Below are positions 3,637 through 49,390 of a DNA stretch of 64,000 bases, piece by piece (position 1 is the stretch's first letter; each line of letters opens with the position of its first letter). The stretch spans positions 41,861-105,860 of the forward strand of contig RSEH01000171.1 in assembly GCA_006503475.1 (NCBI GenBank). The letters are read 5' to 3'. The DNA comes from Stentor roeselii (lineage: Eukaryota > Ciliophora > Heterotrichea > Heterotrichida > Stentoridae). The notes below the pieces were generated by a model. The model ran no database searches and was not told where the DNA came from. It saw nothing but the letters and a program-made list of their open reading frames with translations. A program made the position numbers and the translations under genes.

Positions 3637-4135
3637 ATAATGTAGGTTTATGGATACTTGATTGATTAGAGTTTAATGATTAGTAAATGGATTACAGTTT
3701 GATTTCTAGGACTTGATAAATGGGTTTGAAAGAAATTCGGATTTATTTGATATGAATGGATATTTACATTTGAAATCCTTGTCTGTTGCTAATATTTAAA
3801 AATTTCCAGAATAGAATCTCAATATTCAAAAACTTGAAACATATTTATCAGCTTCAAATAGGTAAAAATAAATATTCTGTTAATTTAAAATCTGATGATC
3901 AATCTTCTAAACAAAACTGAAGAATCAATGAAAGTCTAATCAAATCAAAGTATAAGAAACTAACAACATCCATAAGATGCAATTTACTATCATTACTAAT
4001 CCTAACAACAACAATTAAATCTTATTCAAACTATACAAATCCTAACAATAACAATTAAATCTTATTCAAACTACATCCTAAACAACAAAGCAACAATAAA
4101 ATCTTATTCAAACTACATACCTTAACTTCTTCCAA
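3637..4135. other. AT-rich spacer ending in a 40-bp tandem repeat
   Basis: 499 bp between the convergent lipid kinase (+) and MGC protein (-) genes. The first 360 bp show no open frame of note. The last part is the repeat listed at 3998-4118. I see no RNA gene. Confidence 0.6.
3998..4118. repeat. Three tandem copies of a ~40-bp unit
   Basis: Units start at about 3998, 4038 and 4078. The first two are almost identical, sharing AATCCTAACAA(C/T)AACAATT and then AAATCTTATTCAAACTA. The third keeps the ATCTTATTCAAACTACAT half and has diverged in the other half. It lies immediately 3' of the gene at 4136-4921. Confidence 0.8.
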
Positions 4136-5171: not shown

Positions 5172-5789
5172 ATGTTAAGACTTGGAACATTTTTAAAGCG
5201 ATTTTACTTCCGTCCTCGCGACCTTCCAATATACAAGCATGACATGATGGTTAGCATGGTGCCAAACTTCATAAATTGCCAACAAAGCCTCGAGTTTCTG
5301 CAAGTGAACGAAGGACAGATTCCCCCAAAAGTAATTGGAGACGTACTTCTAACAATCTGCTCTCTTCAATTGCCCCTCGACGAGCATTGGCCTGAGATTT
5401 GCAAACATGTGAAGACCATTATCGCTGAGTATAACAGACACGTGATTACTGATCTATTTCGAGTTACAAGGTATATGGCTGAAATAGGAGAAACTAATCA
5501 AGAATTCTGGGACTTGATTGAAAAAAAACTCATGGGCGAAGGACTTGTCAGGTACTTAAGTGAAAAAGAAGCCGCACAGCTATTGTGGGGACTTTGCAGA
5601 GTTAACCAGGGAAGTGAACAACTGTGGAAAAGACTGGAAAATGAAGTAGCTCGACATCATTTCTCACTTGATTATGATGATGTCAGGGAAGCGATATATG
5701 GACTTGAAGTGTCTGGAAAGGGTAGCAAAGAAGTGATAGCTACTTTGAAAGGACATCTTAAAGAGCACGAGCTTTCTCTTCTAGTTTAG
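5172..5789 (+). CDS. Probable mitochondrial helical-repeat protein
   Basis: 205 aa. The first 16 residues (MLRLGTFLKRFYFRPR) have no acid and several Arg/Lys spaced among hydrophobics, as in a mitochondrial presequence. The rest is built of paired amphipathic helices. The stretch SEKEAAQLLWGLCRVN followed by an E-x-L-W-K-x-L-E helix resembles repeats of mitochondrial RAP/octatricopeptide-type RNA-binding proteins, in which a helix of the form a-x-x-LLWGL is typical. No RAP domain is present at the C-terminus and the protein is short. It ends 42 bp before the telomere-like array. Function by family likeness would be organellar RNA metabolism or mitoribosome association, which is inference. Confidence 0.65.
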   Translation: MLRLGTFLKRFYFRPRDLPIYKHDMMVSMVPNFINCQQSLEFLQVNEGQIPPKVIGDVLLTICSLQLPLDEHWPEICKHVKTIIAEYNRHVITDLFRVTRYMAEIGETNQEFWDLIEKKLMGEGLVRYLSEKEAAQLLWGLCRVNQGSEQLWKRLENEVARHHFSLDYDDVREAIYGLEVSGKGSKEVIATLKGHLKEHELSLLV

Positions 5790-5831
5790 ATTCTAGATAG
5801 TTAAGCATGAAATAAAATGAAGGGCTTTAGT

Positions 5832-5863
5832 TAACACCTTAACACCCTAACACCCTAACACCC
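5832..5863. repeat. Interstitial telomere-like array, four TAACACCC units
   Basis: Thirty-two bases read as four consecutive 8-mers: TAACACCT once, then TAACACCC three times. As I remember it, the heterotrich macronuclear telomere unit is CCCTAACA (TGTTAGGG on the other strand), so the array is in the C-strand orientation. It sits between the stop at 5789 and the PX-START ATG at 5880, and the DNA on both sides is ordinary gene sequence. It is therefore not a chromosome end in this assembly. Confidence 0.8.
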
Positions 5864-5879
5864 AGTCTTATGCTAATAA

Positions 5880-7496
5880 ATGGAAGGCATAAAAAGTGAA
5901 ATCAAAATCCCAAAAACACAAATCAAGAAATCAGACTCTTTCTTCGGGTCCACCTTTACAGTACCTCCTAAATAGCTTTACGAGATCCACACGAATATTC
6001 CAGGAGTTTGTGAAATGATTACTTTAAAGCGCTATTCAGAACTTCGAGAATTATCAGAAAAAGTAACTAAAAATCAGCTAAAACCTCTTTGCGAGACTCT
6101 TGATATCTACCTTCCCAACTTTCCAGGAAAAAAACTAATGAAAAACCGAGACTCTTTAACTGAAAAGCGACGTGAAAAGATAGAACGTTGGCTTCAACTT
6201 GCTGTGAAACATTCGAGCTTATCTAAAAAAATTATGGATTTCTTGAACTTAAGTGAAGAAACTATTCAAAACGAGTTATCGGCCTCGGCGAAACCTGATG
6301 AAAACTACGTCTTAGACTTCATTGAAAAGCTTTCAGGATGCAAGAACAACAAACTGAACCAAATCGATAAATTTTGTTTCATGTTTTTCTCAAGAAAAAG
6401 AACAGTCTCTGATGCTGTTTTAAAAAAACTTCTTGAAGCATTGTTGCCTTTATGTGGATCAGATTTATGTGGAGGTAAAGTAGTTGACGTTCTAAGTAAA
6501 TTAACTTCAAGTGACTATTTCAAGGACTTTGCCTGTGTTTGTAAGGTATTTGCAAACATCGATATTTACCTTCTAAGAGAAATGAACCTAAATGATTACT
6601 TGACAAAGAAAAAATTTGTAGACAGTCAATTACAAGTGTATAAATTATGCAAGATATACGAAGAGAACTGCAGATCACCAGTTCTCAACGAACTAGTAAA
6701 ACCTAAACAGCTCTTAAACGACAAAGACGCCATTTTTGTATATAGAAACTGGGGAATGCAAACAAAGCAACCAGACCAGCAATTATCACTCGAAATCTTA
6801 TCATGGCGCCCACTGATCTCCACTGAAAACATGAGTGTAAAGTTCAGGTTCATTGAAAGACAACTAGAAATCTCTGGAGAGATCATCGTTGAATCCTCTG
6901 TACAAAAAATAATCAATATCTTAACAGTTCCTTCAGAACGTAAAAAGTGGGACATTCTTCTCATCGACATGAAACCTGTCGGTTCAAACGGTTTCATCTT
7001 CACCTATTCAAGCGAGAAGACCGTTTATGAATTCCATACTTTAATCTCAATTGCAAAAGCTTCAGAATCAGAACAAATTCCAGCAACTGTTGAATTCGTT
7101 ACAACTTGCTATGAAAAACTAGATCCTATTTCAAAGATAGGAAAAATTAACTCAAGTTACTCAATAGAGAAAATGGATGAACATGTTTCTAGCACTAAAG
7201 AAAGCCAAGATATGATTCTTTGTGGGTTGGCCAGCGACTTCGTCGCTGGCAGGGTAAAAGTGCAGTGGTCGTCGAGTTACTGTCAAACAAGCTTCTCATT
7301 AGTAAGAGGAGACGTGTTTCAAGAGGCTGATGTTCTCAAGAAAAGCTTGGATAGGCTTATTTGTGTTGCTGAAGGGCGAGAGGAACAAATGGAATCCTTA
7401 GAAAATCCGAAAAATCCACTTATTGATGCTTTTGAAAGGAAAAGACTTGACAGGGCTTTTACTTTTTGTAGTTCAAACCAGTTTCAGAGTGAATAG
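5880..7496 (+). CDS. PX-START domain protein, one 15-nt intron
   Basis: 533 aa when spliced: exon 1 is 5880-5960, the intron is 5961-5975 and exon 2 is 5976-7496. The unspliced frame would start only at 6015 and would lose the first strand of the PX domain. Splicing gives MEGIKSEI...SFFGSTFT-LYEIHTNIPG, then LKRYSELREL, NFPGKKLM and EKRREKIERWL. This is a complete PX fold (about residues 20-120), which binds phosphoinositides. A middle helical region of about 150 residues follows. The C-terminal part (about 300-490, from LSWRPLISTENM through VQKIINILTVPSERKKWD to the YSIEKMDE region) is a START-type lipid-binding domain. It looks like a phosphoinositide-targeted lipid-transfer or sensing protein. 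A second possible cryptic intron is noted at 6063-6077. Confidence 0.85.
5961..5975 (+). other. 15-nt spliceosomal intron (PX-START gene)
   Basis: GTACCTCCTAAATAG, phase 0, with an in-frame TAG at its end. Removing it joins an upstream ATG exon to the rest of a PX domain. A at position 10. Confidence 0.85.
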
Positions 7497-13988: not shown

Positions 13989-16900
13989 TCATAATCTTTC
14001 TTCAAACACAGTATTATCTCCAGGAAAATCCTCATCAGGGTCTCTAGGAGTGATACTAAACTGGGTATAACCTAACTTTCTACTTTCTACAACTCCTCTT
14101 ACATAATTTCTCCACCCTTTCAAAATACTTTTAAGCAAAATTTTTTCTAAGAAGAAATTTGTAGAAGTTTCTTTATGATCTTCTAAAATCTTCTGCTTCC
14201 AATATTTTTTCTGCTGTTTTTTTGTTAGTTTCGAGATGATTGACTTTGTTTTTTTTTCTTCATTTCCAACAATTTTGCGAAAATAAGTATTTGAGTCTTT
14301 TTTCAAGAACTTTTTTTTTAATATTGCGAAAAGAAACTGGTTATAATAAATAAATCCTTCTTTATCAGTTTCTATTTGAAGAGCTTTAAGAAATCTCATT
14401 ATTTTTAAGTGGTCTGTGTTGAAATTTATCCCGAATTCATTTAAGTTTTTCATTATTTCAGGAAGGTCACTGATTTGAACTCGTATTCCTTTTTGATCCT
14501 TTGAGAAGAGGTTCCAGATGGTTTTGATGGGATAGACTGCCTGCTCAAATATAAAAGCTACAGTTTGCGGGTTTTTATCATATTCTTCATAAGACTGTAT
14601 AATAACCATGATAAACAAGTTAAGCATGACAAAAACAACAAGAATCATGAAACTCAGAAAGTAAGTTTCAGCAAGTACCATTCCCTGAGCCTTGCCACAT
14701 TCAAACATGATTTTATACCAGTCCTCGCCAGTTGTACATCTGAACAAAGTAAGCATGGCAAGTCCAAAACTAGCGAACCTCGCAGAATTCAAGGTTCCAA
14801 AAAAATGGTAGCCTAAAATCGCATATATGTAGAAAATCAGCACAAGCAATGCCATCACATTTCCAAAAGCAGGTAATGAGTAAAAAATTATATCTAGTAG
14901 CTTTTTTAATGGTTTGAGTATTTTAAACAAACGTATAAACTTCGATATTCGAAAAACCTTTATCGACCTAATTAGCTGAGGCCCTTTTCTCAATAAGATG
15001 ATACTAGATCCAAGAATAAACGTCAAAAAGATATCCACAAACGAAATAATAACCACACCAAAATCAAAAACATTAGAAAAGCTCGAAAAGTATCTCCTCA
15101 ACCCTAATCCAACGACCTTAAAAATCGCTTCTACCAAGAAAAAAAACGTAAAAATCAAATTACAAGTATCAAGAGCATACAAATAGTCCTTTCCCGCGTC
15201 TTCATACACAATTGCCATAGAAATCATATTACAGATGATAACAAAAACCACAACCACTTCAAAATAACTACTTTCAATAACCCCAAAGCAAAACTTCCTA
15301 ATTTTCCCAGAAGGTGTCTGACAATTTCCACCAGCAGAAGAAGCTTTAATAATAAGTTTCTGCATTTCAATCCAAGTCATCTGCTCCTTAGTTAAAATAG
15401 ACGCTGCAAGTGAGGACTCATGTTTTCTAGCTTCATTAAACTTCTCATAAACGACTCCAACAAACAGGTTCATGAAGAAAAAAGAAGAAATCGTGATAAA
15501 AATCACGAAATAATAAGAAACGTTTGGGTTGAAGTCCTTTACAGGCGCTTTGTCCACATCAGTGGCGTCAATCGCGGAGTACATGATTTCCGGCCACCCT
15601 TCTTCTGAACTAAGAATCATCAAAGTAATAAAAGTATTCCACACATTATCGAAATTCGGCCAAAGAACCTGCCAAGAAAATCCAGATTTTTCGCATAAAT
15701 TTCTATCAAAACTTTGATTTTCCTTACAAATGTAAAGTTTTCCTGCAAATAACGAAACTCCTAAAATAGCGAACATCAAAACAACGATAGCTTGGACTAT
15801 TATCACGTTTAAAATAGCGACAATAGATTGAAGTAATGAAATAACTACGATTTTCATAGAGTTGTTATAGTTTATGTACCGGAAAGGTCGAAGAGTTCTT
15901 AGAAGTCTCACGACTTTTATGTGGGAAATTTGAATGTTGGCAAAAGCGAAGTCGAATATTGAAGAAAGGACGACGACTAGGTCGATGTAGTTCCATTTGT
16001 CTTTCATGTAAGAAGAGTCGCCGAAGATAAACCCACGACTGATGATTTTTATCAGAAACTCAAGGAAAAATATCACAGAAAATATCTTGTCAATCACGTC
16101 AAGTTTACTAATCATCTCATCTGACAAATAAGTGTCAACTGCCAGTTTTACACTACTCACTAAAATAATCATCAAAATAAAATACTCAAAAATCTGAGAA
16201 AACGACAAAAAAATGCAGAACTTTCTAAATTTATTCTCAATTGAAAATAAAAAAAGACTCTTTCCAGGATTTGCTAAAATCGTATTTTTCACTGATTGAG
16301 AATGATTTAAATTCTGTTCATCTTCACTATCACTATTCATTTCATCAATCATTCTCAAATTTCTCTGTAGTCTTTTCGACATCCTAATAGAATGACCTTC
16401 AAAGATCCTTTCCTTCCTTTCCTTAACATCATCTTCAACGTTATTTTCCGAGAAATTTTCAAGTAAAATCGCTAGAAACAAGTTCAAAATAATATAATTT
16501 CCCAAAACAATCCAAGAAATAAAATACAAACAACTGACATACCCAGCGTCAGAATTCATCGCTGCATAAAAAATGCTCTGCCAGTTCTCAACTGACAAGA
16601 CTTGAAAAGTGCTGAGAAGACTTGCGTGAAAAGAGTCAAAATTCGCTCTTGTTGATGATTTGAACTTGCCACTGAAGATTTGCATTCCTAGAATAGTGTA
16701 GACCATTATCAGGATAAATAAGAGAAGGCCGATGTACATGTAACGAGTGACTGACTTGCTGATAACTGCGATGATATGAGCCATTGAGTGCAGGTAACGA
16801 AAAAGCTTGGCAACTCGTAAGATTCTTAAGACTTTAAACAAGCGAAAGACCCGAGCCGTTCGAAAAGCACTTAAGACTGACTTGGTGCCTGATGTGAATG

Positions 16901-19193
16901 ACAACTCGACGATACTTAGAACAACTATCGACCCATCAAAAAGATTCATCAGGTCTTTACAGTACCCTTGCAACCCAAGCGCCAGTACTTTCAAAAACAT
17001 CTCAAAAATAAAAATATAAGTAAAGCCTAGATTGATGTTTAACAGAACTGTTTGCATCTCTTCAGTGATCCCGTAATGATCGATACTTAAAACCAAGGTA
17101 TTCGCCAATACACTGAAAATCAGTAAAATGTTAAAAGTTCTAGATTCAATAAAAACTCGTAAAGGAAATCGACACTTTTCAAAAATTCCCCAAATGTTCT
17201 TGTTCCAAATACGAAATTTCATGTTGTTTAAACTAGTCATCACTTGAACACTGCTTATCTCTGAAACTTCTCTTCCTGACCAGATCCCTTCAATATACCT
17301 TGTTTCTTCTTCGATTTTTTCTAGTTTTTTACAGAAAAAAGAAACTTTCTGATTAATCAGTTCAAAAGCAGCTTCTTCATTGTACTTTAAAGTCAACTTG
17401 CTGAATATTTTAAAGTCAGAAACAGGTCCTGCAAAGCTTTCATTCAGAACTTCTCGGGTCAAGTTGTGGTCCCAGGTCCTGATAGGATTTTCCATAACTT
17501 CTTCAGGCAACTTATGTAAAAAGGTCCTGCTGGGCACCCTGGCGAAGTTGTCAAGAGTTAAACTTCTGTTTATTGGTTTGATGTCTAAACTTGAGCTATT
17601 CCAAAGTAAAAATTCCTTTAAAATGACTTTAGTTTTAAAGAGCTGGTCACCTTGAGTCACTTGGTCCAGAGCTACTTTAGAGATGGGAAGTTTTGAATTC
17701 ATTCTTTGAAATAAACTCTCGACTTTTACAGAATTTGAATTGAGAAGTGATTGAAATTTTTCGGAAAAATCGATTTGTAAGTCACTTGGCTTTTTACTGT
17801 TTAAGTCGCAGGTGATTCGTTCTACTCCGTCGTTTTGATGATCGATTCGCAGTTCGGAATATTGAGGGTTAGGGATATCGCTTCTAAAGGGTGAAAAGTC
17901 TTGATTTTCACCGTTTTCAGCAAGTTTTGATGAAAGTTGTCTTGAATCGATCCAGTTATTTGAGGATTTCTTTGAATTCTGACCTTTTATTATTGTTTTT
18001 GTTAAAGCTGACTTGATTATCACCATGAAAAGGTTCAGGAAGACTAAGGAACCGATGAAGACGAGAGGAAGGAAGTAAAGGATTGTTAGATTGCTGAAGG
18101 TTTTTTCAGTTATTTTTAAAATTTCTACCCAACCTTCTAAAGTTATGCACTGGTAAACTATTAGTGATGCAAAAAATATGTTGTCGAAGTTCACGATTCC
18201 TGAACCTGGGTTGGTTAAACTTCGAACGCATTCTTCAGATGGCGGGCAGATTAAATTACCGCAGCTGGATGAACGGATCACTCCTGAATTTAGGTCCATG
18301 CATTTGTAGTAAAAGAGACCTGACCATAACTGCATACCTCCAATTGCAAAAATCAAAATAAAAAGCAAGAACAAACTCATAGCAGCCGACAAAGGCCTAA
18401 TAGAAGTCCCAATCGAAACAATAATAATCCTTAAAGCCTTCAAACTACTGATGCTTTTTAAAGGCCTCAAAATCCTTAACACCCTAAGAACCTGAAGATT
18501 AAAGCTAGAATTCAAAGAATAGTCCAGCCAAAACGTAAGCAGCAAAGAAAAGTCCAAAACATTCCACTTCTTCTTAAAATAATTTTTTTTTCCTCCGAAC
18601 ACCCCAAGACTAAAAATTTTGACAAAAAACTCAAAAGTAAAAACCGCTAAAAAAAACTCTTCTAAAGCCTTGCCACTCGAACTAGACATCGAAGGACTAT
18701 CCAAGGCCAAAGTCAAGGTATTCGCAATAATAACTAAAAAAATAACTACTCGAAAAGTGAAAGTTTTCATAATTTTCATGCAAACTTCACTTACCCCAGC
18801 AGCGATTCTACGAAAAGCGTTTTTAAAATCTTGAAAATTTGAGAAATTTTGTGAATTTTCAATGATTTCATAGCTATTTTTTTCAATTATTTGCAAACAT
18901 TCTGAGTAGTTAATTTTTTCATCTATTTTAAGGTCGTGATCTTTGAAGACTTTGAATGCGCTTAGTTCTGAAATTTCGAAGTCGTACATTGGAGAGATTT
19001 CTGAGTTTTTTGTGTTGGATCTGATCAGGTTCACAAAGGTCGGACCTCGAAGTAAGCCCAGGAGTAAAGGCGATCGAATCTGGGCGGAACTGGGAGGGTT
19101 CGAGTCTAAAGATTCTGAAAAGGAATCTGGGTCTTTCACTGTGATTATGTTTAGGTGAAGAGCCTTTCTTGGGCTTTTATGCATTCTTTCCAT
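13989..19193 (-). CDS. Four-domain voltage-gated calcium channel alpha subunit
   Basis: 1734 aa, intronless. Four homologous 6-TM domains lie at about 145-400, 685-912, 1002-1250 and 1310-1540. Each has an S4 with periodic Arg/Lys (for example VLRVLRILRPLK and RVFRLFKVLRILRVAKLFR) and a pore loop. The selectivity-filter positions are Glu in all four: TLEGW (E353), SVENW (E869), SSEEGWP (E1198) and TTGEDW (E1490). EEEE marks Cav-type calcium selectivity, against DEKA (Nav) or EEKE (NALCN). The I-II linker is long (about 285 residues) and polar. The C-tail after domain IV has an EF-hand-like helical region and basic segments. In Paramecium such channels are ciliary and trigger reversal; a ciliary place here is inference. 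Confidence 0.92.
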   Translation of the reverse strand: MERMHKSPRKALHLNIITVKDPDSFSESLDSNPPSSAQIRSPLLLGLLRGPTFVNLIRSNTKNSEISPMYDFEISELSAFKVFKDHDLKIDEKINYSECLQIIEKNSYEIIENSQNFSNFQDFKNAFRRIAAGVSEVCMKIMKTFTFRVVIFLVIIANTLTLALDSPSMSSSSGKALEEFFLAVFTFEFFVKIFSLGVFGGKKNYFKKKWNVLDFSLLLTFWLDYSLNSSFNLQVLRVLRILRPLKSISSLKALRIIIVSIGTSIRPLSAAMSLFLLFILIFAIGGMQLWSGLFYYKCMDLNSGVIRSSSCGNLICPPSEECVRSLTNPGSGIVNFDNIFFASLIVYQCITLEGWVEILKITEKTFSNLTILYFLPLVFIGSLVFLNLFMVIIKSALTKTIIKGQNSKKSSNNWIDSRQLSSKLAENGENQDFSPFRSDIPNPQYSELRIDHQNDGVERITCDLNSKKPSDLQIDFSEKFQSLLNSNSVKVESLFQRMNSKLPISKVALDQVTQGDQLFKTKVILKEFLLWNSSSLDIKPINRSLTLDNFARVPSRTFLHKLPEEVMENPIRTWDHNLTREVLNESFAGPVSDFKIFSKLTLKYNEEAAFELINQKVSFFCKKLEKIEEETRYIEGIWSGREVSEISSVQVMTSLNNMKFRIWNKNIWGIFEKCRFPLRVFIESRTFNILLIFSVLANTLVLSIDHYGITEEMQTVLLNINLGFTYIFIFEMFLKVLALGLQGYCKDLMNLFDGSIVVLSIVELSFTSGTKSVLSAFRTARVFRLFKVLRILRVAKLFRYLHSMAHIIAVISKSVTRYMYIGLLLFILIMVYTILGMQIFSGKFKSSTRANFDSFHASLLSTFQVLSVENWQSIFYAAMNSDAGYVSCLYFISWIVLGNYIILNLFLAILLENFSENNVEDDVKERKERIFEGHSIRMSKRLQRNLRMIDEMNSDSEDEQNLNHSQSVKNTILANPGKSLFLFSIENKFRKFCIFLSFSQIFEYFILMIILVSSVKLAVDTYLSDEMISKLDVIDKIFSVIFFLEFLIKIISRGFIFGDSSYMKDKWNYIDLVVVLSSIFDFAFANIQISHIKVVRLLRTLRPFRYINYNNSMKIVVISLLQSIVAILNVIIVQAIVVLMFAILGVSLFAGKLYICKENQSFDRNLCEKSGFSWQVLWPNFDNVWNTFITLMILSSEEGWPEIMYSAIDATDVDKAPVKDFNPNVSYYFVIFITISSFFFMNLFVGVVYEKFNEARKHESSLAASILTKEQMTWIEMQKLIIKASSAGGNCQTPSGKIRKFCFGVIESSYFEVVVVFVIICNMISMAIVYEDAGKDYLYALDTCNLIFTFFFLVEAIFKVVGLGLRRYFSSFSNVFDFGVVIISFVDIFLTFILGSSIILLRKGPQLIRSIKVFRISKFIRLFKILKPLKKLLDIIFYSLPAFGNVMALLVLIFYIYAILGYHFFGTLNSARFASFGLAMLTLFRCTTGEDWYKIMFECGKAQGMVLAETYFLSFMILVVFVMLNLFIMVIIQSYEEYDKNPQTVAFIFEQAVYPIKTIWNLFSKDQKGIRVQISDLPEIMKNLNEFGINFNTDHLKIMRFLKALQIETDKEGFIYYNQFLFAILKKKFLKKDSNTYFRKIVGNEEKKTKSIISKLTKKQQKKYWKQKILEDHKETSTNFFLEKILLKSILKGWRNYVRGVVESRKLGYTQFSITPRDPDEDFPGDNTVFEERL

Positions 19194-34934: not shown

Positions 34935-35549
34935 ATGGAATCACACATCACCCGCACCTGTGTAATCGCTGGAGGAGTTAGAAGGCTTCATTCAACCTAC
35001 CCCGACGGCACTGAAATCGTTGAAGAGTTCAATATTTCCACTCACGAGTTATTAAACCGGAAAGTAAAACATTTATCTAAACTAGGAGAAGGCAAATGGG
35101 AATGGGAAGTAGGAGAAGGTCCAAGACAAGAAAGCGAGATCAAACAAAGTGGAGAAAACGTAATGAAAAATCAGCCAATCTTCCTTAGAAAAGACACTCT
35201 TCAAGAATTTCAATGGAGAGTCAGGAACCTGCCGTACCCGCCTTCGACATATTCAGTGACAGGCGATGGACAGACAGGGAAAATAACGATAAGGACAACA
35301 AACAAGAAATATTTTAAAGTCTTTTCTGTTCCTGACCTGGCAAGAGTAAGAGCTCATTTGGACCCTGGCTTAATCAGGTGGGGACATGAGTTTAACACCC
35401 TGGTCATCAGCGTAATTCAGAAATAGTACCCAAAACCCAGGCAGGTCCTGGAATACGAAAACTCACTCAAGGCTCAACTGGAGCAAGCGAGAAAAAATAG
35501 AGGAAATCGACCTCCGAATGAAGGGGATGTTGAATGTGTTCAGCAGTAG
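34935..35549 (+). CDS. DPCD: DPCD homologue, one 15-nt intron
   Basis: 199 aa when spliced: exons 34935-35411 and 35427-35549. The start is the ATG of MESHITRT; the frame runs further up without an ATG. DPCD signatures are plain: EGKWEWEVGEGP, QPIFLRKDTLQEFQWRVRNL followed by PYPPSTYSV, and IRTTNKKYFKVFSVPDL. Without splicing the protein stops at 35426 and lacks the tail. Splicing adds YPKPRQVLEYENSLKAQLEQ, giving the LVIS-YPKP joint that matches IISYQKP of animal DPCD, and nearly the human length (203). DPCD is a cilium-associated protein that works with R2TP/RUVBL chaperones in dynein assembly. Its stop lies 24 bp from the convergent TMEM41 stop. Confidence 0.92.
35412..35426 (+). other. 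15-nt spliceosomal intron (DPCD)
   Basis: GTAATTCAGAAATAG, phase 0, in-frame TAG. Splicing restores the conserved DPCD C-terminus. A at position 10. Confidence 0.92.
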
Positions 35550-39592: not shown

Positions 39593-42500
39593 TTAGTACT
39601 TATTAGACCCATCAGGAACCGGGTAATAACACGCAACTAAAATCCTAATCGATATCATTTTCGATGAATAAGGAAAAACCCTGGCAGCGACCGCCCACTT
39701 GATATTTTTATAATTCACACAAAAGAAGTCCTTAGCCTGATCAATAAACAACGAGGCAATTCGATCAGGTTCCGGGTAATTAAAATGTGCAGGATAAGCA
39801 CTAAACCTAAACATTGTCGGCATGAACTGCCTCATGGTCATAGCCCAATCTCTTTTAATTTTATTGATAGACTCCTCTTCAACTTCTCCACGATCGACTT
39901 TTTCCAGGAACACGAGATGTTCTTCAAGTAGTTGAACACAATAATCATTTTGATTTTTCCAAGAAGTTCCTAAGTTTTTTCCACTTCTTAAAGCACTGAT
40001 TGAAATTTTCATTTCTTTGATAATTGAAGAGTGAAGCTTTTTAGACTGGGCCAAACTTAAAGGTGGCACCATTATTGGAGGAGGGTAAAAAGCAGGGTAA
40101 GCTTTGAAGTTATTTTTTACAAAAGGGTACCAAAGGGTGTCGTCGTAAATGTCGTAGATTAATCGAGTTGGGTCGAAATGTTGAAGATTCATGAAAATGT
40201 TCTTGTTGTTGAAGATTATGTCGATTGTTCTGTAAGGAGTGTCGATGTCTGTCGCGCCTTTTAGGATTTTTGGCTCTTGAACGATACTTGCGTAGTTTTC
40301 TTTTTTGTTTTCTTCGATGTTGCGTTTTTTTTCTAGGTAGTTGGATTCGGATTTCTTTTTTATTGGCTCCTCTCTCATGCTTAAAGGCTTGAAACGAAAT
40401 TTCGTGTTTCGGTCGAGGTCGAATTCAGAGATTTTCATGTCTTTTATCACTCTTTTGTTACCGACACCTTTGTCCTCGTTTTCTTGGTCCTCGGAAACGT
40501 CGTCTCCTGAGTCATCATCGAGAATATCTTCAAGGATTTCATTCATATCTTCTTTATTGGATTCTTGCTTTATTTCTTCTACTTTTTCCTTCTGTACTGA
40601 GGTTTCGACCTCTTGTTTGTTTAAATATTTTTCAAGATTTTCTGGATCTTTTACTCTTACTTTTAACTCGTAGCTTGTGTTGTTAGTTGGCTCCCAAAAC
40701 GTAACACCTTTATAATCACTATGAATAGTCATAACCCATGCATGAGGTAATTTTCTTTGTTTAAGCGACCCGATACATACAAAAACCCGATTTTCCATAT
40801 TAGACTCACTCTCATCACTTACCCTAGTAGACTTAAGCTCCCTCATGGTATCAATCTTCGAACTAATCATATCCTTTAAACCGCCCATTTCAGATTCAAG
40901 CGGAACATCACTGGCAGTTTCATATTTAACACTGGACATAAGACAAGCAAGAAAAATCGCATGATCCTCGACTTCTCCTTTTTTCATATGAATGAGAAAC
41001 TCAGGAGAAGTCCAGATGCTATTCGGTATTCCAGTGTAAGTGATAAGAGAAGCATAATAATTACACTCAGCAAGAGTTTTAATGCTGAAATAATCAACCG
41101 GGTACTTCACAACTTCAGTCGAACCTCTCGTCGCAGGGTCAGGGTATCCAGTTTTACTGATAAACATTGGCAAAAACTGTTCAATATCCTTCTCGTCTTT
41201 TGCCTCACAAATGAAATCTCTTTGAGTTTCTTCAGGAAAGGCTTCTTTTATTTCAAGTGCTTTTTCATTCCATTTTTGTTTCAGATCTAAAAAGTTATCT
41301 GGCTTGTTCACCACATCTTCTCTCGGCAAGTCGTCATAATCCAAGGTTTTTTCATGTTCGTATAACACCCAAACTTCAAAGAACAAGTTAGAAACTTCTC
41401 CTTTTTCAATAAATGGGGAAGATAATTGTTTTTTGCCTGACCAAGTTCTTACTTTCATGATTCGGGTGCTTTGAACTTTTTCATCGAAGAATTCCTTTTC
41501 TTGGATTGTAGAGTTTTGAAGTTCAGTGATGAAAAAGCCGCAGTTTCCTAAACTGTCATTCGCGAGTTGTTCATCGATAGAAAAGAAGTTAAATTTGATA
41601 GACCCGTATAAGTTAAGTTCTTTCAATATCAGCTTATTCCGCTTTCGGTAGTTGTCGTCATCGATATCGTGGGTGAGGTTTATAGGGAAGTAAAAAGTGT
41701 CGTTAAAGATAGGTTTATAAGATCTGAAAGCAGTTTTAGTTCGTTTTAAGTACCCTCCCCAGGAGACCTCAATGAAAGAATTGACAACACCTTTATCATG
41801 TGCGAGGATGACATTATCAACTCTCATGATATTCACACACAAATATTGATTTTCACTGCTGAGCATAATGATATCCCCAGTCTGTCGGTATTTCGGCACC
41901 CTTAAAATATTAATCCTGCCTTTGATCGAGCACTGATGCAAGGTCACATCACGAGTTTTCAAAGCAACATCCGTAGAAATAATTCCGCAGTCTAAAATTC
42001 CTTTCAAATCCGTTATTTTCGAGCCAACCAGAGTTTTATTGATAAGTCCTCCATCATAAATCTCAATTCTCAACTTCTGATTTTCCAGTTCATTAGTAGT
42101 TCCTCTAAACGAAATAGATCCTTTAATAGTAGGCCAGGTAGGGTTAGGTTCATTATCAATAACCTTCGTTCTAATCTTCGTCCGAAAAATTCCTTGTCCA
42201 GCAAGTGAAAGTCTCAAAGAAGGTGACGGGTCCTGATTGATATCAATTGCCTTGATTTTCGAGCCACTCCAATCACTGAATCCCAATTCAAAGTCCCAGA
42301 CTTCCTGAAAAGAAATCGTGAAACTCAAACGAGCCAATTTCACTTTTTTCTTTTCTCCTGACTTGTTAACTAAGAACTCCTGGTCAACGTCTCCTTGGAC
42401 GAGGTCAATGAGAGGAATTTCGACTCTTCCAAGGAATTCATTGAGATTCCAGTTCTCGTGGTCCCAGATGTCAATTCGCAGAAATTGCTCTTGAATGTCG

Positions 42501-47500: not shown

Positions 47501-49390
47501 TTCCCAGGTGAAAGCCTTGATGCCTGCGGGAGGGACAATATAAGTCAGCACTAATATCAAGCTATCATCTCGGGGGTAGTAAATCGGGTGGACTTCAGGG
47601 TCAAATATCAAAGCCTCTGAAATCCTCTGCTTTAAAAGTTCACAAGAAAGTTTTTCCCAGTAGTTCCTGGCACTTAAATCAACAATTTCATTACTTTTCT
47701 CGCTAAGGTAATCTTCAACGTGCTTCAACATCAACAGCCGATCGAATTCTTTTAAAGAAAAACTGGAAAACGCGTAAGTCTCGCATCGATTCAAGTGTCG
47801 AGGGCCGAAACTCTTCTCAGGCAAGGCAGGCATCAAGTTCCTGCCGACTCCAGGAACGACTAACTGCGCCAAGACTTGTTTTTCCACATCAGCGACTTTG
47901 AGGCCTTCTGAAAAGCTGCAGTTTCGAGCGGTTCTTTCTGCAACGTTCGCGTGGTCTACTATCCCTGAACGGAACTCTAAAGACTTTGAGGGGAAATGGG
48001 CTGTTAGACGCTTTTTAAAGGCTCTGAAAAGCCCAGAAGGCGCGTTTAGAGCTTCTTGAATGTAAAAGTCGGAGTTTTGCAAGGACTGTAGAAGAACTGC
48101 TGAAAAGTACTCAGCGTTTGCGCAGATGTCGTCGTTTTGGAATAATAACTTGTGTAGCACTCGCAAGTCCCAGGCTTTTGCGCTGTCGTCTTGAGATGGA
48201 ATGTCGGACAATAGACGCTGAGGCTCTGGAGTCCCTTGTGGAGAACCTCTTTCAGTTCCTACTGCCAATGACTCCAGGTCTGCATGGGTTGAAGGGAAAA
48301 GAGGACGGAGCTGGACGATTTCTTTCCAGTTTGAGTATTTTATGAAAAGGACTGAAAAGTCTAGAATTTTTTGAACGAGTTCTAAGACGAATACCTTTTT
48401 AGGGTCTGGCGGGGTGTTATCAACGACTTCTGCCTTTTCTTCTACTTTGACCTCCTCTTCTTTTTTCTTATCTTCTTTGATAGTTTTTTTAGGGTCGACT
48501 TTTTTTTTTGCTTCTTCAATTTTTTTCCGTTCTTCTTCTTTTTTCTTCTCCTCTTCTTTTTTTTTCGCTTCTTCCAGTTTTTTCTGCTCTTCTCTTTTGC
48601 GCTCTTCAAGTTTTTTCAGCTCTTCTTTTCTCTTCTCATCTTCCTTTCTTCCCTTTTTCTTCCCCTTACCTTTTTTCTCTTCTTCTTCTTTAGTTTCAAC
48701 GACTTCCTGCGGTTTATTTAGTTGAAACTCAACAGGAAAAAGCATCAAATTCCTCAAAGGTGAGTTTTTCTGACTTTTATAAAGCGAGTTCTGAAGAAAT
48801 TTCCAAGAATCTGGAAAATCCGGAGGATTTTCCGCATCTTCAGGAAGTTCAGCCCTATACAAAAGTAGTTCACTAGGATGTGGGCGTACATAAACAAGAA
48901 GATTGACAGAATTATTATACCTTCCAAGTGCGTCAGCTTCTTCTTGAGTTTTAGGAAAGCCGGTTAATAGGTAAATGCGGTCAGGCTTGCTAGGATTATG
49001 AAGAACGATCGGATTTTCAGCTGGAACTTGGCCTTTCTCAATAGCTTCAGCCCGCTGTTTTTCAGCCAGTTCGTATTTTTGAATAGTTTCTTTTTTCGCT
49101 TTGCGGCCCTGAACATCAAGACTGAAGAGTTTTTCTTTTAATCCTCTTCCAAGAAGATCTGCAGGGACTGCGGAGTCCTGAGTTTCAGGAGTTATAAAAG
49201 TCTTCTCACGGCCGAAACTGATGATTTCTTCTCGCGTCAAGGCGAAAAACTGGCTGAAGGGAAAGTGCGATTTTAAGTCAGCGACATAAGGATGCCACTC
49301 GACTACCAGCAAAAAAGACGACCAGGGCGGGAGGGTGTTTAAGTCGATCTCTTCTTCTTGTTTTTTCTCATCTTTCCGCTTGGGTCTCAT
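44537..49390 (-). CDS. SPAG17: SPAG17/PF6 central-pair protein
   Basis: 1617 aa, intronless. Family marks: a long Lys/Glu low-complexity block (about 225-320, built of KKEEE units), beta-rich central repeats like the SPAG17 'FANGNVSRY...DGSWITEHADGTRI' region (about 790-900), charged helices (about 1090-1250), and a C-terminal ASH-like domain, LQVIPASLRFGVVKINEIYE, with PIAPGMFVKLAVEI (about 1480-1590). SPAG17 (Chlamydomonas PF6) forms the C1a projection of the axonemal central pair and is needed for motility. It is shorter than human SPAG17 (about 2220 aa). TGA is the stop, direct evidence that TGA is not a sense codon here. ATG at 49388-49390, 56 bp after the F-BAR gene stop. Confidence 0.9.
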   Translation of the reverse strand: MRPKRKDEKKQEEEIDLNTLPPWSSFLLVVEWHPYVADLKSHFPFSQFFALTREEIISFGREKTFITPETQDSAVPADLLGRGLKEKLFSLDVQGRKAKKETIQKYELAEKQRAEAIEKGQVPAENPIVLHNPSKPDRIYLLTGFPKTQEEADALGRYNNSVNLLVYVRPHPSELLLYRAELPEDAENPPDFPDSWKFLQNSLYKSQKNSPLRNLMLFPVEFQLNKPQEVVETKEEEEKKGKGKKKGRKEDEKRKEELKKLEERKREEQKKLEEAKKKEEEKKKEEERKKIEEAKKKVDPKKTIKEDKKKEEEVKVEEKAEVVDNTPPDPKKVFVLELVQKILDFSVLFIKYSNWKEIVQLRPLFPSTHADLESLAVGTERGSPQGTPEPQRLLSDIPSQDDSAKAWDLRVLHKLLFQNDDICANAEYFSAVLLQSLQNSDFYIQEALNAPSGLFRAFKKRLTAHFPSKSLEFRSGIVDHANVAERTARNCSFSEGLKVADVEKQVLAQLVVPGVGRNLMPALPEKSFGPRHLNRCETYAFSSFSLKEFDRLLMLKHVEDYLSEKSNEIVDLSARNYWEKLSCELLKQRISEALIFDPEVHPIYYPRDDSLILVLTYIVPPAGIKAFTWEGKWRVRPNFHQWFKYFNAEIPILDFYDIDEGLVGPLMEKKTVAFPSDSSCITIKEFTVGPRVITEDSREDLFTSKFLNYISKHGSFFGMREKEAWFSFPDRSSALVEPRQLSITLEGLVLRFSEGEVLQELSVKEPKLNNEVNRVVTGKGSVIRYFEWGVEVLFANGNVSRYSYEDPGWISVNNKGLRRKNKEGLVEELESMPCAEVTDPYTLVRTMTRDDGVVVIYNTDGSWITEHADGTRISAETGLISIESPGYAPVKVLLMQSSIEIETYLPDQSIVRLASGQITFYAHDMRIIKVNSNFAYFLTGETVNYLQSQNFDVENELESGLPGVYQFDLYNSSIKVQDQLNNTFTVNLSGKLETNIVNINRTSVIPRIFLIQNNDEGFEIMDQVQMEGLKRLLSSEPRLFQEQEKVFHCFYEPIHESKQFESVLSPYNYSAAFSTVKSHQNENKSSPKSNISVFRSFIQHPEIDVEKKSQFLEDLEKYKAWKTTQVTARHEFGVEDLREAETRRVEFEIKKKIIEYRQDPALTQVETYEEYKEKMLDCVFSMIQAEEDEERRRLEERMFKERQATMIKPKPVFVKEHKPRKAVEKVTQEIPEVAYQSKSFVNYFHSKEGHDYLQENPPLARVVSTEVPPLKDQENDEIFAEDQKIFESKKSNFSPKPQSKPKTGENPFVSLEPELHSKDKYQAKPVILKPVTKPSVFAEVERLQKLREQAEKDSAEEYSLIKSKNFNVYGNPRTEKVTVQVLRSSSPNAAPNAKFILTESATDRRLRTISQSKRAHIKAPTVQDMRREGTHNVLYKALMKKQSYKEMIETQNMMISAYTTDPLKRSLQVIPASLRFGVVKINEIYEMQVLLKNEDNQLLRYVVRQPLRKEVKVLFKPAPIAPGMFVKLAVEICLKQGEKLESEFEIATKTEIYKIPVFANAVPHEDYEKINEEAIRLHGRNILKPSVKAKTSQQSTVRWGESTSSDGNLPKLPRVVN

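What the first reader, a model, noticed from the sequence alone, without database searches (positions are those of the whole stretch)
5832..5863. Internal heterotrich telomere repeat array between two genes
Four in-register 8-mers (three exact TAACACCC, one TAACACCT) match the CCCTAACA telomere unit known to me for heterotrichs, but sit in the middle of ordinary gene DNA in a 90-bp spacer. By chance 32 nt of this order is very unlikely. It could mark a site where telomeres are added in some macronuclear copies (alternative chromosome ends), a scar of an old chromosome fusion, or a regulatory use of telomere-binding proteins near the PX-START promoter.
Basis: partly seen in the sequence, partly recalled or inferred. 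Interest (0 to 1): 0.78.

Follow-up and report, generated by a model that had tools for sequence, protein, structure and literature searches.

The report
Internal telomere-unit array before a gene
A ciliate's gene spacer carries four copies of the species' telomere unit, and this is one local multiplication of a telomere-like DNA word that is strikingly common in its genome, even inside genes, for reasons not yet known.

Summary
The array is real: 5832-5863 is TAACACCT + 3x TAACACCC. TAACACCC is this genome's telomere unit, since sampled contig ends carry arrays of it. It is not unique. The exact 32-mer occurs at 11 internal places, and 75 internal loci with two or more units were examined. 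They lie mostly between genes (40 of 45 loci with long flanks) and tend to read TAACACCC toward a downstream start codon (38 of 53; 41 of 61 with short loci added). Longer arrays carry a CCT unit not seen inside sampled telomeres. Neighbouring copies share one strand, and the unit is better conserved than the rest of the minisatellites carrying it. A fusion scar is disfavoured. Flank comparison gives no support for an alternative chromosome end, but reads are needed to settle that. The unexpected finding: the single unit is over-represented genome-wide. In the coding DNA sampled it is the most over-represented 8-mer against synonymous-codon shuffles (21 vs 2.3), and TAACACCCTGG occurs 372 times (5-6 expected). 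Best reading: the array is a slippage-grown cluster of a dispersed telomere-unit DNA motif, probably bound by a telomere-repeat protein. Binding and function are inferred, not shown.

The parts
5832..5863 (+). array of four 8-mers: TAACACCT (5832-5839) then TAACACCC x3 (5840-5863); right flank AG, left flank T
   Evidence: same 32-mer at 10 other internal places
5790..5879 (.). 90-b intergenic spacer holding the array
   Evidence: own HMM gene finder
5172..5789 (+). upstream gene, 205 aa, no Pfam domain
5880..7496 (+). downstream gene with PX domain; its ATG is 16 b after the array; best named relatives are Stentor coeruleus proteins (45 and 42% identity)
5961..5975 (+). inferred 15-nt intron GTACCTCCTAAATAG (in-frame stop inside, frame kept on both sides)
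   Evidence: read; no transcript data
18477..18484 (+). single dispersed unit TAACACCC inside a predicted voltage-gated calcium-channel gene (13989-19193, minus strand); encodes RVLR, aligned without gap to a T-type channel
35393..35400 (+). single dispersed unit in the context TTAACACCCTGG, inside a predicted coding stretch
41363..41370 (+). single unit TAACACCC in a predicted gene (flank AA)
48412..48419 (-). single unit TAACACCC in a predicted gene (flank CG)

Best explanation
The array is a short tandem expansion, in 8-b steps, of a dispersed DNA motif whose core is one telomere unit (TAACACCC followed by A/T and often G). The motif is over-represented genome-wide, on both strands and in coding DNA too. 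In spacers it can be multiplied by replication slippage or local duplication without breaking a gene, giving arrays and minisatellites; in exons it stays mostly single. Duplicating TAACACCC adds a CCC unit, and duplicating TTAACACC adds a CCT unit on the left, which accounts for the T-left, C-right order seen here. The motif most likely works as a binding site for a telomere-repeat-binding protein (Rap1- or TRB/Myb-like). Next to start codons a cluster would act as a promoter-proximal element, as telo boxes do in plants. Shown: recurrence, placement, orientation bias, shared strand, motif conservation, genome-wide excess. Inferred: the slippage history, the binding protein and the regulatory effect.
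For: Exact 32-mer at 11 internal places, reversed control 0, while matches of window 5400-6300 elsewhere are confined to the array and at most 31 b beside it. Of 45 loci with long flanks 40 are intergenic although about 16-17% of the DNA is non-coding. The neighbour on the array's right presents its start codon in 29 of 41 loci and 9 of 12 later loci, together 38 of 53, one-sided p 0.0011; median distance 55 b in the first set. Direct pairs within 60 b number 199 against one head-to-head and one tail-to-tail pair in the window and 75 loci. In 14 minisatellites motif columns differ in 12/795 cells against 138/2373 in spacers; 12/571 after removing the ascertained doublets, p 1.2e-4. Coding DNA: TAACACCC 21 vs 2.28 expected, rank 1 of 32,896 8-mers; more than 600 b from arrays 16 vs 1.84, and TAACACCC[AT]G 10 vs 0.35. 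TAACACCCTGG 372 genome-wide, control 1, 5.1-6.4 expected. Last unit never CCT in 26 arrays of three or more units, first unit CCT in 12.
Against: No binding or expression data. The later set alone gives only p 0.073. In 17 short internal loci my gene finder saw a start to the right in 3 (L087, L088, L089), an end in 5 (L081, L083, L090, L094, L096), nothing in 6 and the array inside a gene in 3; with these 8 the count falls to 41 of 61, p 0.005. Seven of 41 arrays lie between convergent genes and 5 in tandem spacers pointing against both genes. Downstream genes share no obvious function. Single units far from arrays are not enriched in spacers: 2 in 26,987 b against 18 in 152,778 b of coding DNA. 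Orientation bias could instead come from selection against G-rich RNA in untranslated regions. Several CCT arrays lack a T on the left (L056, L070, L087, L090, L092), which simple slippage does not predict.
Confidence: 0.45

Rival explanations
1. Neutral interstitial telomeric sequence. At a germline break telomerase added one or a few whole units, the ends were rejoined, and slippage grew minisatellites. Arrays survive between genes because they do harm elsewhere, and orientation reflects selection on RNA, not regulation.
For: Internal arrays keep the phase of real telomere joints: next base A/T in 75 of 75 loci and at 23 of 23 sampled contig ends, with spacer G+C 27%. Precedents: mammalian ITS at repaired breaks (PMC2246262, passages) and a telomerase model for plant telo boxes (PMC3022908, discussion part 1).
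Against: Two single units in coding DNA align without gap in conserved domains (CDC14, calcium channel), so these are not insertions. CCT is present in 17 of 17 internal arrays of four or more units; in 23 sampled ends it appears only at the chromosome joint of two (L104, L127). The right flank is [AT]G in 43 of 93 internal arrays against 4 of 23 ends, p 0.017. The motif is better conserved than its minisatellite.
Confidence: 0.33
2. Alternative telomere addition site: in some macronuclear copies the chromosome ends here and the array seeds the telomere that caps the fragment holding the PX gene.
For: The heterotrich Blepharisma has 46,705 potential such sites (PMC9942806, passages); the orientation suits a left chromosome end; the unit would be a perfect telomerase primer (inference).
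Against: No second contig matches this region beyond the array and 31 b beside it. Sampled contig ends have mostly TA-type flanks, none TG[GA], so they do not sit at the favoured form of the motif. In Blepharisma the sites are spread over the genome and most rest on one read.
Confidence: 0.1
3. Assembly artefact: telomere-bearing reads were folded into the consensus at internal places.
For: Telomere-bearing reads are very common in a related genome (one in eight).
Against: The CCT unit is not inside sampled telomeres, arrays begin and end at a favoured phase, units sit in minisatellites with diverged spacers, and both neighbouring reading frames are open.
Confidence: 0.04
4. Scar of an old telomere-telomere chromosome fusion.
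For: Telomere unit inside a chromosome.
Against: Single orientation, only four units, no unit on the other strand within 500 b; head-to-head pairs almost absent in 75 internal loci; the same 32-mer recurs at 11 places. Head-to-head pairs were not searched genome-wide (one search tested the opposite arrangement and found 2 sites).
Confidence: 0.03

Closest known systems
Plant telo box (AAACCCTA), short interstitial telomere motif
   Same: One telomere unit placed near gene 5' ends, far above chance, with one favoured phase (PMC3022908: abstract, section 5 and part 1 of 2 of section 9 read)
   Different: Plant telo boxes are low in coding DNA and tied to ribosome-biogenesis genes; here single units are also over-represented in coding DNA, arrays are tandem, and no gene class stands out
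Yeast Rap1 rpg box
   Same: Telomere-like C-rich word (ACACCC core) used at gene promoters by a telomere-binding protein (as described in PMC3022908 section 9)
   Different: No binding protein known here; no link to highly expressed genes was tested
Interstitial telomeric sequences inserted at double-strand breaks in rodents and primates
   Same: Short internal telomeric arrays with unrelated flanks (PMC2246262, passages)
   Different: Here a stereotyped 32-mer with a CCT unit recurs, and the two coding copies aligned are not insertions
Alternative telomere addition sites of Blepharisma
   Same: Heterotrich macronucleus, telomere unit a permutation of CCCTAACA (PMC9942806, passages)
   Different: Those are seen as telomere-bearing reads, not as encoded arrays; sampled contig ends here do not show the motif's TG[GA] flank
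Sequence for elimination (SFE) motifs of nematodes
   Same: DNA motifs at or near places where somatic chromosomes are cut and capped (PMC13370393, passages)
   Different: No link found between the present motif and sampled chromosome ends

Membership tests
interstitial telomeric sequence (ITS) | tandem copies of the species' own telomere unit at an internal place | tested here: met
telo-box-like promoter element | preferential position near gene starts | tested here: met
   arrays: 38 of 53, 41 of 61 with short loci; but single units are not spacer-enriched
telo-box-like promoter element | association with a gene class such as translation genes | tested here: not met
   25 of the 29 downstream genes were scanned against Pfam; 13 matched a family, with no shared class; no formal enrichment test
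telo-box-like promoter element | bound by a telomere-repeat protein and affecting transcription | not testable with these tools
   needs experiment
alternative telomere addition site | telomere-capped reads ending at the site | not testable with these tools
   no reads held
alternative telomere addition site | flank like that of real chromosome ends | tested here: inconclusive
   A/T rule shared (23 of 23 ends, 75 of 75 loci), but [AT]G flank 43/93 vs 4/23
telomere-telomere fusion scar | head-to-head inverted arrays | tested here: not met
   no opposite-strand unit within 500 b of the array; 1 head-to-head pair in the window and 75 loci
telomerase insertion at a break | empty ancestral site in a relative | not testable with these tools
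   no relative's DNA held; two coding copies aligned are not insertions

The most novel reading that the evidence does not exclude
The macronuclear genome of this heterotrich carries a genome-wide chromosomal DNA signal, TAACACCC[AT]G, identical in its core to the telomere unit, kept on both strands of coding and non-coding DNA by choice of synonymous codons. It would mark the chromosomes for a telomere-related machine (partition, repair, fragmentation or chromatin), somewhat as Chi or KOPS words (recalled) mark bacterial chromosomes. The arrays in spacers would be local multiplications of that signal.
Probability: 0.3. Interest if true: 0.85.

Novelty: new variant of a known kind. Interest (0 to 1): 0.6.

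Why it matters
If the excess is confirmed on the whole genome, the telomere unit of a ciliate is also one of the strongest DNA words inside its genes. That would link telomere biology with the upkeep of a fragmented somatic genome. It is directly testable with existing heterotrich genomes, reads and expression data.

Tried and rejected
Rejected: chance; telomere-telomere fusion; a tight promoter box (single units far from arrays: spacers 2 in 26,987 b, coding DNA 18 in 152,778 b); a class-specific regulon; single coding units as insertions or transposon footprints (gap-free alignments to CDC14 and calcium channels; two cases only); sampled contig ends at the motif (0 of 23 with TG[GA]).

Led nowhere: the Rfam ciliate telomerase RNA rang nowhere, controls included, so it says nothing. 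The codon-score gene caller was too weak and was replaced by the HMM. The Stentor genome paper is not held. Ten paper searches showed in their listings no report of an internal telomere-unit motif in a heterotrich. Of papers I saw passages of PMC9942806, PMC2246262, PMC13370393 and PMC2633312 (the last, held no telomere-like internal motif among its passages), and the abstract with section 5 and part 1 of 2 of section 9 of PMC3022908; the rest are listings only. The library holds only part of the literature. The species was not identified.

Limits: gene calls are my own HMM without transcripts; for short loci I used a lower start penalty than for long ones. Loci were chosen because they hold arrays, and not every internal locus was fetched. 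The orientation idea arose, so only the 12 loci are independent, and alone they give p 0.073. In one search L052 is counted as intergenic although one search placed a small predicted gene across it; L040, L062, L077 and L078, with arrays inside predicted genes, were left out. The 17 short internal loci are not in the 53; 3 show a start and 5 an end on the right. By eye an ATG also follows the array in L082, L090, L092 and L093, unconfirmed (for L090 against the gene finder). Expected counts 0.70 and 2.04 are scaled. An earlier codon shuffle that still held array genes gave 33 vs 2.79. One search covered only one inverted arrangement, and not the one that a fusion would give.

Full report
1. 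The observation. Window 5832-5863 reads TAACACCT TAACACCC TAACACCC TAACACCC; Tandem Repeats Finder reports period 8, 4.0 copies. The 32-mer with up to 3 mismatches occurs once in the window and in none of 100 dinucleotide shuffles. A gene finder that I trained on the window and loci puts it in a 90-b spacer (5790-5879) between two genes on the + strand, 42 b after a stop and 16 b before an ATG. The downstream gene has a PX domain; no START domain was found. It carries an in-frame 15-nt insert GTACCTCCTAAATAG (5961-5975), like the 15 and 16 bp introns reported for Blepharisma (PMC9942806 passages). Its best named relatives are Stentor coeruleus proteins at 45 and 42% identity, so this is probably a heterotrich, but not that species.

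2. It is the telomere unit. The window lies in G000, 44.4 Mb in 522 contigs. TAACACCC runs sit at contig ends, reading into the chromosome at left ends. At 23 sampled ends (21, two more) the chromosome begins right after a CCC with A or T (20 T, 3 A).

3. It is one of many internal arrays. Two adjacent units preceded by a non-C base occur 89 times (two at contig starts, C174 and C276), 16 further matches are preceded by C (several at contig ends), and TAACACCTTAACACCC occurs 32 times. None of the 32 lies within 9 kb of a contig start, and the 29 on contigs of known length are at least 9 kb from the end. The exact 32-mer of the window occurs 11 times, all internal. Reversed-pattern controls gave 0 in these four searches. 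Matches of window 5400-6300 to the rest of the genome are confined to the array and at most 31 b beside it. I examined 93 arrays in 75 internal loci. The base after the last unit is A or T in 75 of 75 loci, with G+C 27% in spacers. Of 17 arrays with four or more units all contain a CCT unit; of 26 with three or more, the last unit is never CCT and the first is in 12. In the 23 sampled ends TAACACCT appears only at the chromosome joint of two (L104, L127), not inside the array.

4. Where they sit. Of 45 loci with long flanks 40 are intergenic and 5 overlap predicted genes; non-coding DNA is 16% of the window and 17% of 20 loci. Read as TAACACCC, the array is followed by a gene start in 29 of 41 loci and 9 of 12 later ones (of 15 fetched, two were contig ends and one lay in a gene): 38 of 53, one-sided p 0.0011; the later set alone gives 0.073. 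In arrays of three or more units it is 12 of 14 in the first set. Seventeen short internal loci are less favourable: a start on the right in 3, an end in 5, nothing seen in 6, array inside a gene in 3. With these 8 the count is 41 of 61, p 0.005. Also against a simple promoter element, 7 of 41 arrays lie between convergent genes and 5 in tandem spacers pointing against both genes. Downstream genes are diverse: of 25 scanned out of 29, 13 match a Pfam family, among them a Bud23-type methyltransferase, mitochondrial pyruvate carrier, chaperonin, glutathione transferase, Ras-type GTPase and DHHC transferase.

5. Clusters and minisatellites. Within 60 b there are 199 direct pairs, one head-to-head and one tail-to-tail pair in the window and 75 loci. 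Genome-wide, direct pairs with a non-telomeric spacer match 73 times (about six at contig ends; control 1), and the tail-to-tail arrangement occurs at two sites. Many loci are minisatellites with unrelated repeat sequences that share only the unit, whose copy number changes between neighbouring repeats (for example 2 and then 5 in L081). In 14 of them motif columns mismatch in 12 of 795 cells against 138 of 2373 elsewhere. None of 20,000 random rotations reaches this, and after removing the doublet that brought each locus in it is 12 of 571, p 1.2e-4.

6. The wider finding. Single units are common in coding DNA. Against shuffles that keep every protein and the codon usage of each gene, TAACACCC occurs 21 times where 2.28 are expected (highest of 60 shuffles: 7), rank 1 of 32,896 8-mers (170 segments, 170,583 b, genes holding an array dropped). 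More than 600 b from any array it is 16 against 1.84, TAACACCC[AT]G 10 against 0.35, and the reversed word 0 against 2.64 (146 segments, 135,651 b, 300 shuffles). Both strands take part (9 sense, 7 antisense). In the window alone it is 4 in 51,966 b, about 0.70 expected by scaling. Genome-wide TAACACCCTGG occurs 372 times (control 1; 5.1 to 6.4 expected from Markov models of the window) and ATTAACACCCTG 159 times (control 0; 2.6 to 3.2 expected); some of these lie in minisatellites. Two coding copies that I aligned fall gap-free in conserved domains, the loop HCKAGLGRTGT of CDC14 and a segment of a calcium channel that I take for S4. These are not insertions; the codons make the word.

7. What it most likely is. 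The array looks like a tandem expansion of this dispersed word in a place that tolerates it. Duplication of TAACACCC adds a CCC unit, and of TTAACACC a CCT unit on the left; this would give the observed order without point mutation (inference; five CCT arrays without a T on the left do not fit). The right flank here is AG, of the dispersed-motif type: [AT]G in 43 of 93 internal arrays against 4 of 23 telomere joints, p 0.017. The function I consider most likely is binding of a telomere-repeat protein, with a promoter-proximal effect where clusters face a gene. This is inferred by analogy with plant telo boxes and yeast Rap1 sites (PMC3022908). A neutral origin through telomerase and slippage is nearly as likely for the arrays, but does not explain the excess in coding DNA.

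8. Novelty. Arrays and telo-box-like motifs are known kinds. A telomere unit as the most over-represented 8-mer of sampled coding DNA was not among the listings of my ten paper searches; most subscription journals are not in that library.

Noticed in passing
G000 contig ends C9, C216, C251, C511: Outer parts of some terminal arrays are C-rich and irregular, perhaps consensus errors at contig ends.
   Followed up: no
window 13989-19193 (-): Predicted voltage-gated calcium channel of about 1740 aa with four Ion_trans stretches in one open frame.
   Followed up: partly
window 4002-4127: 40-b minisatellite (3 copies) without the telomere unit, so spacer minisatellites are not all of the telomere-unit type.
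   Followed up: no
predicted genes of window and 44 loci: Predicted stops are 84 TAA, 61 TAG, 20 TGA; whether the 20 TGA are true stops was not tested.
   Followed up: no
coding DNA of window and 44 loci: Other 8-mers also exceed synonymous shuffles (AAGACCTG 40 vs 10.5, AGTCCTTC 40 vs 12.9, GGACTTGA 33 vs 9.9); unexplained.
   Followed up: no
L046, L070: Arrays sit beside predicted genes that I read as TATA-binding protein (L046 left), and ribosomal protein P1 and profilin (L070); names are recalled from the translations, not searched.
   Followed up: no
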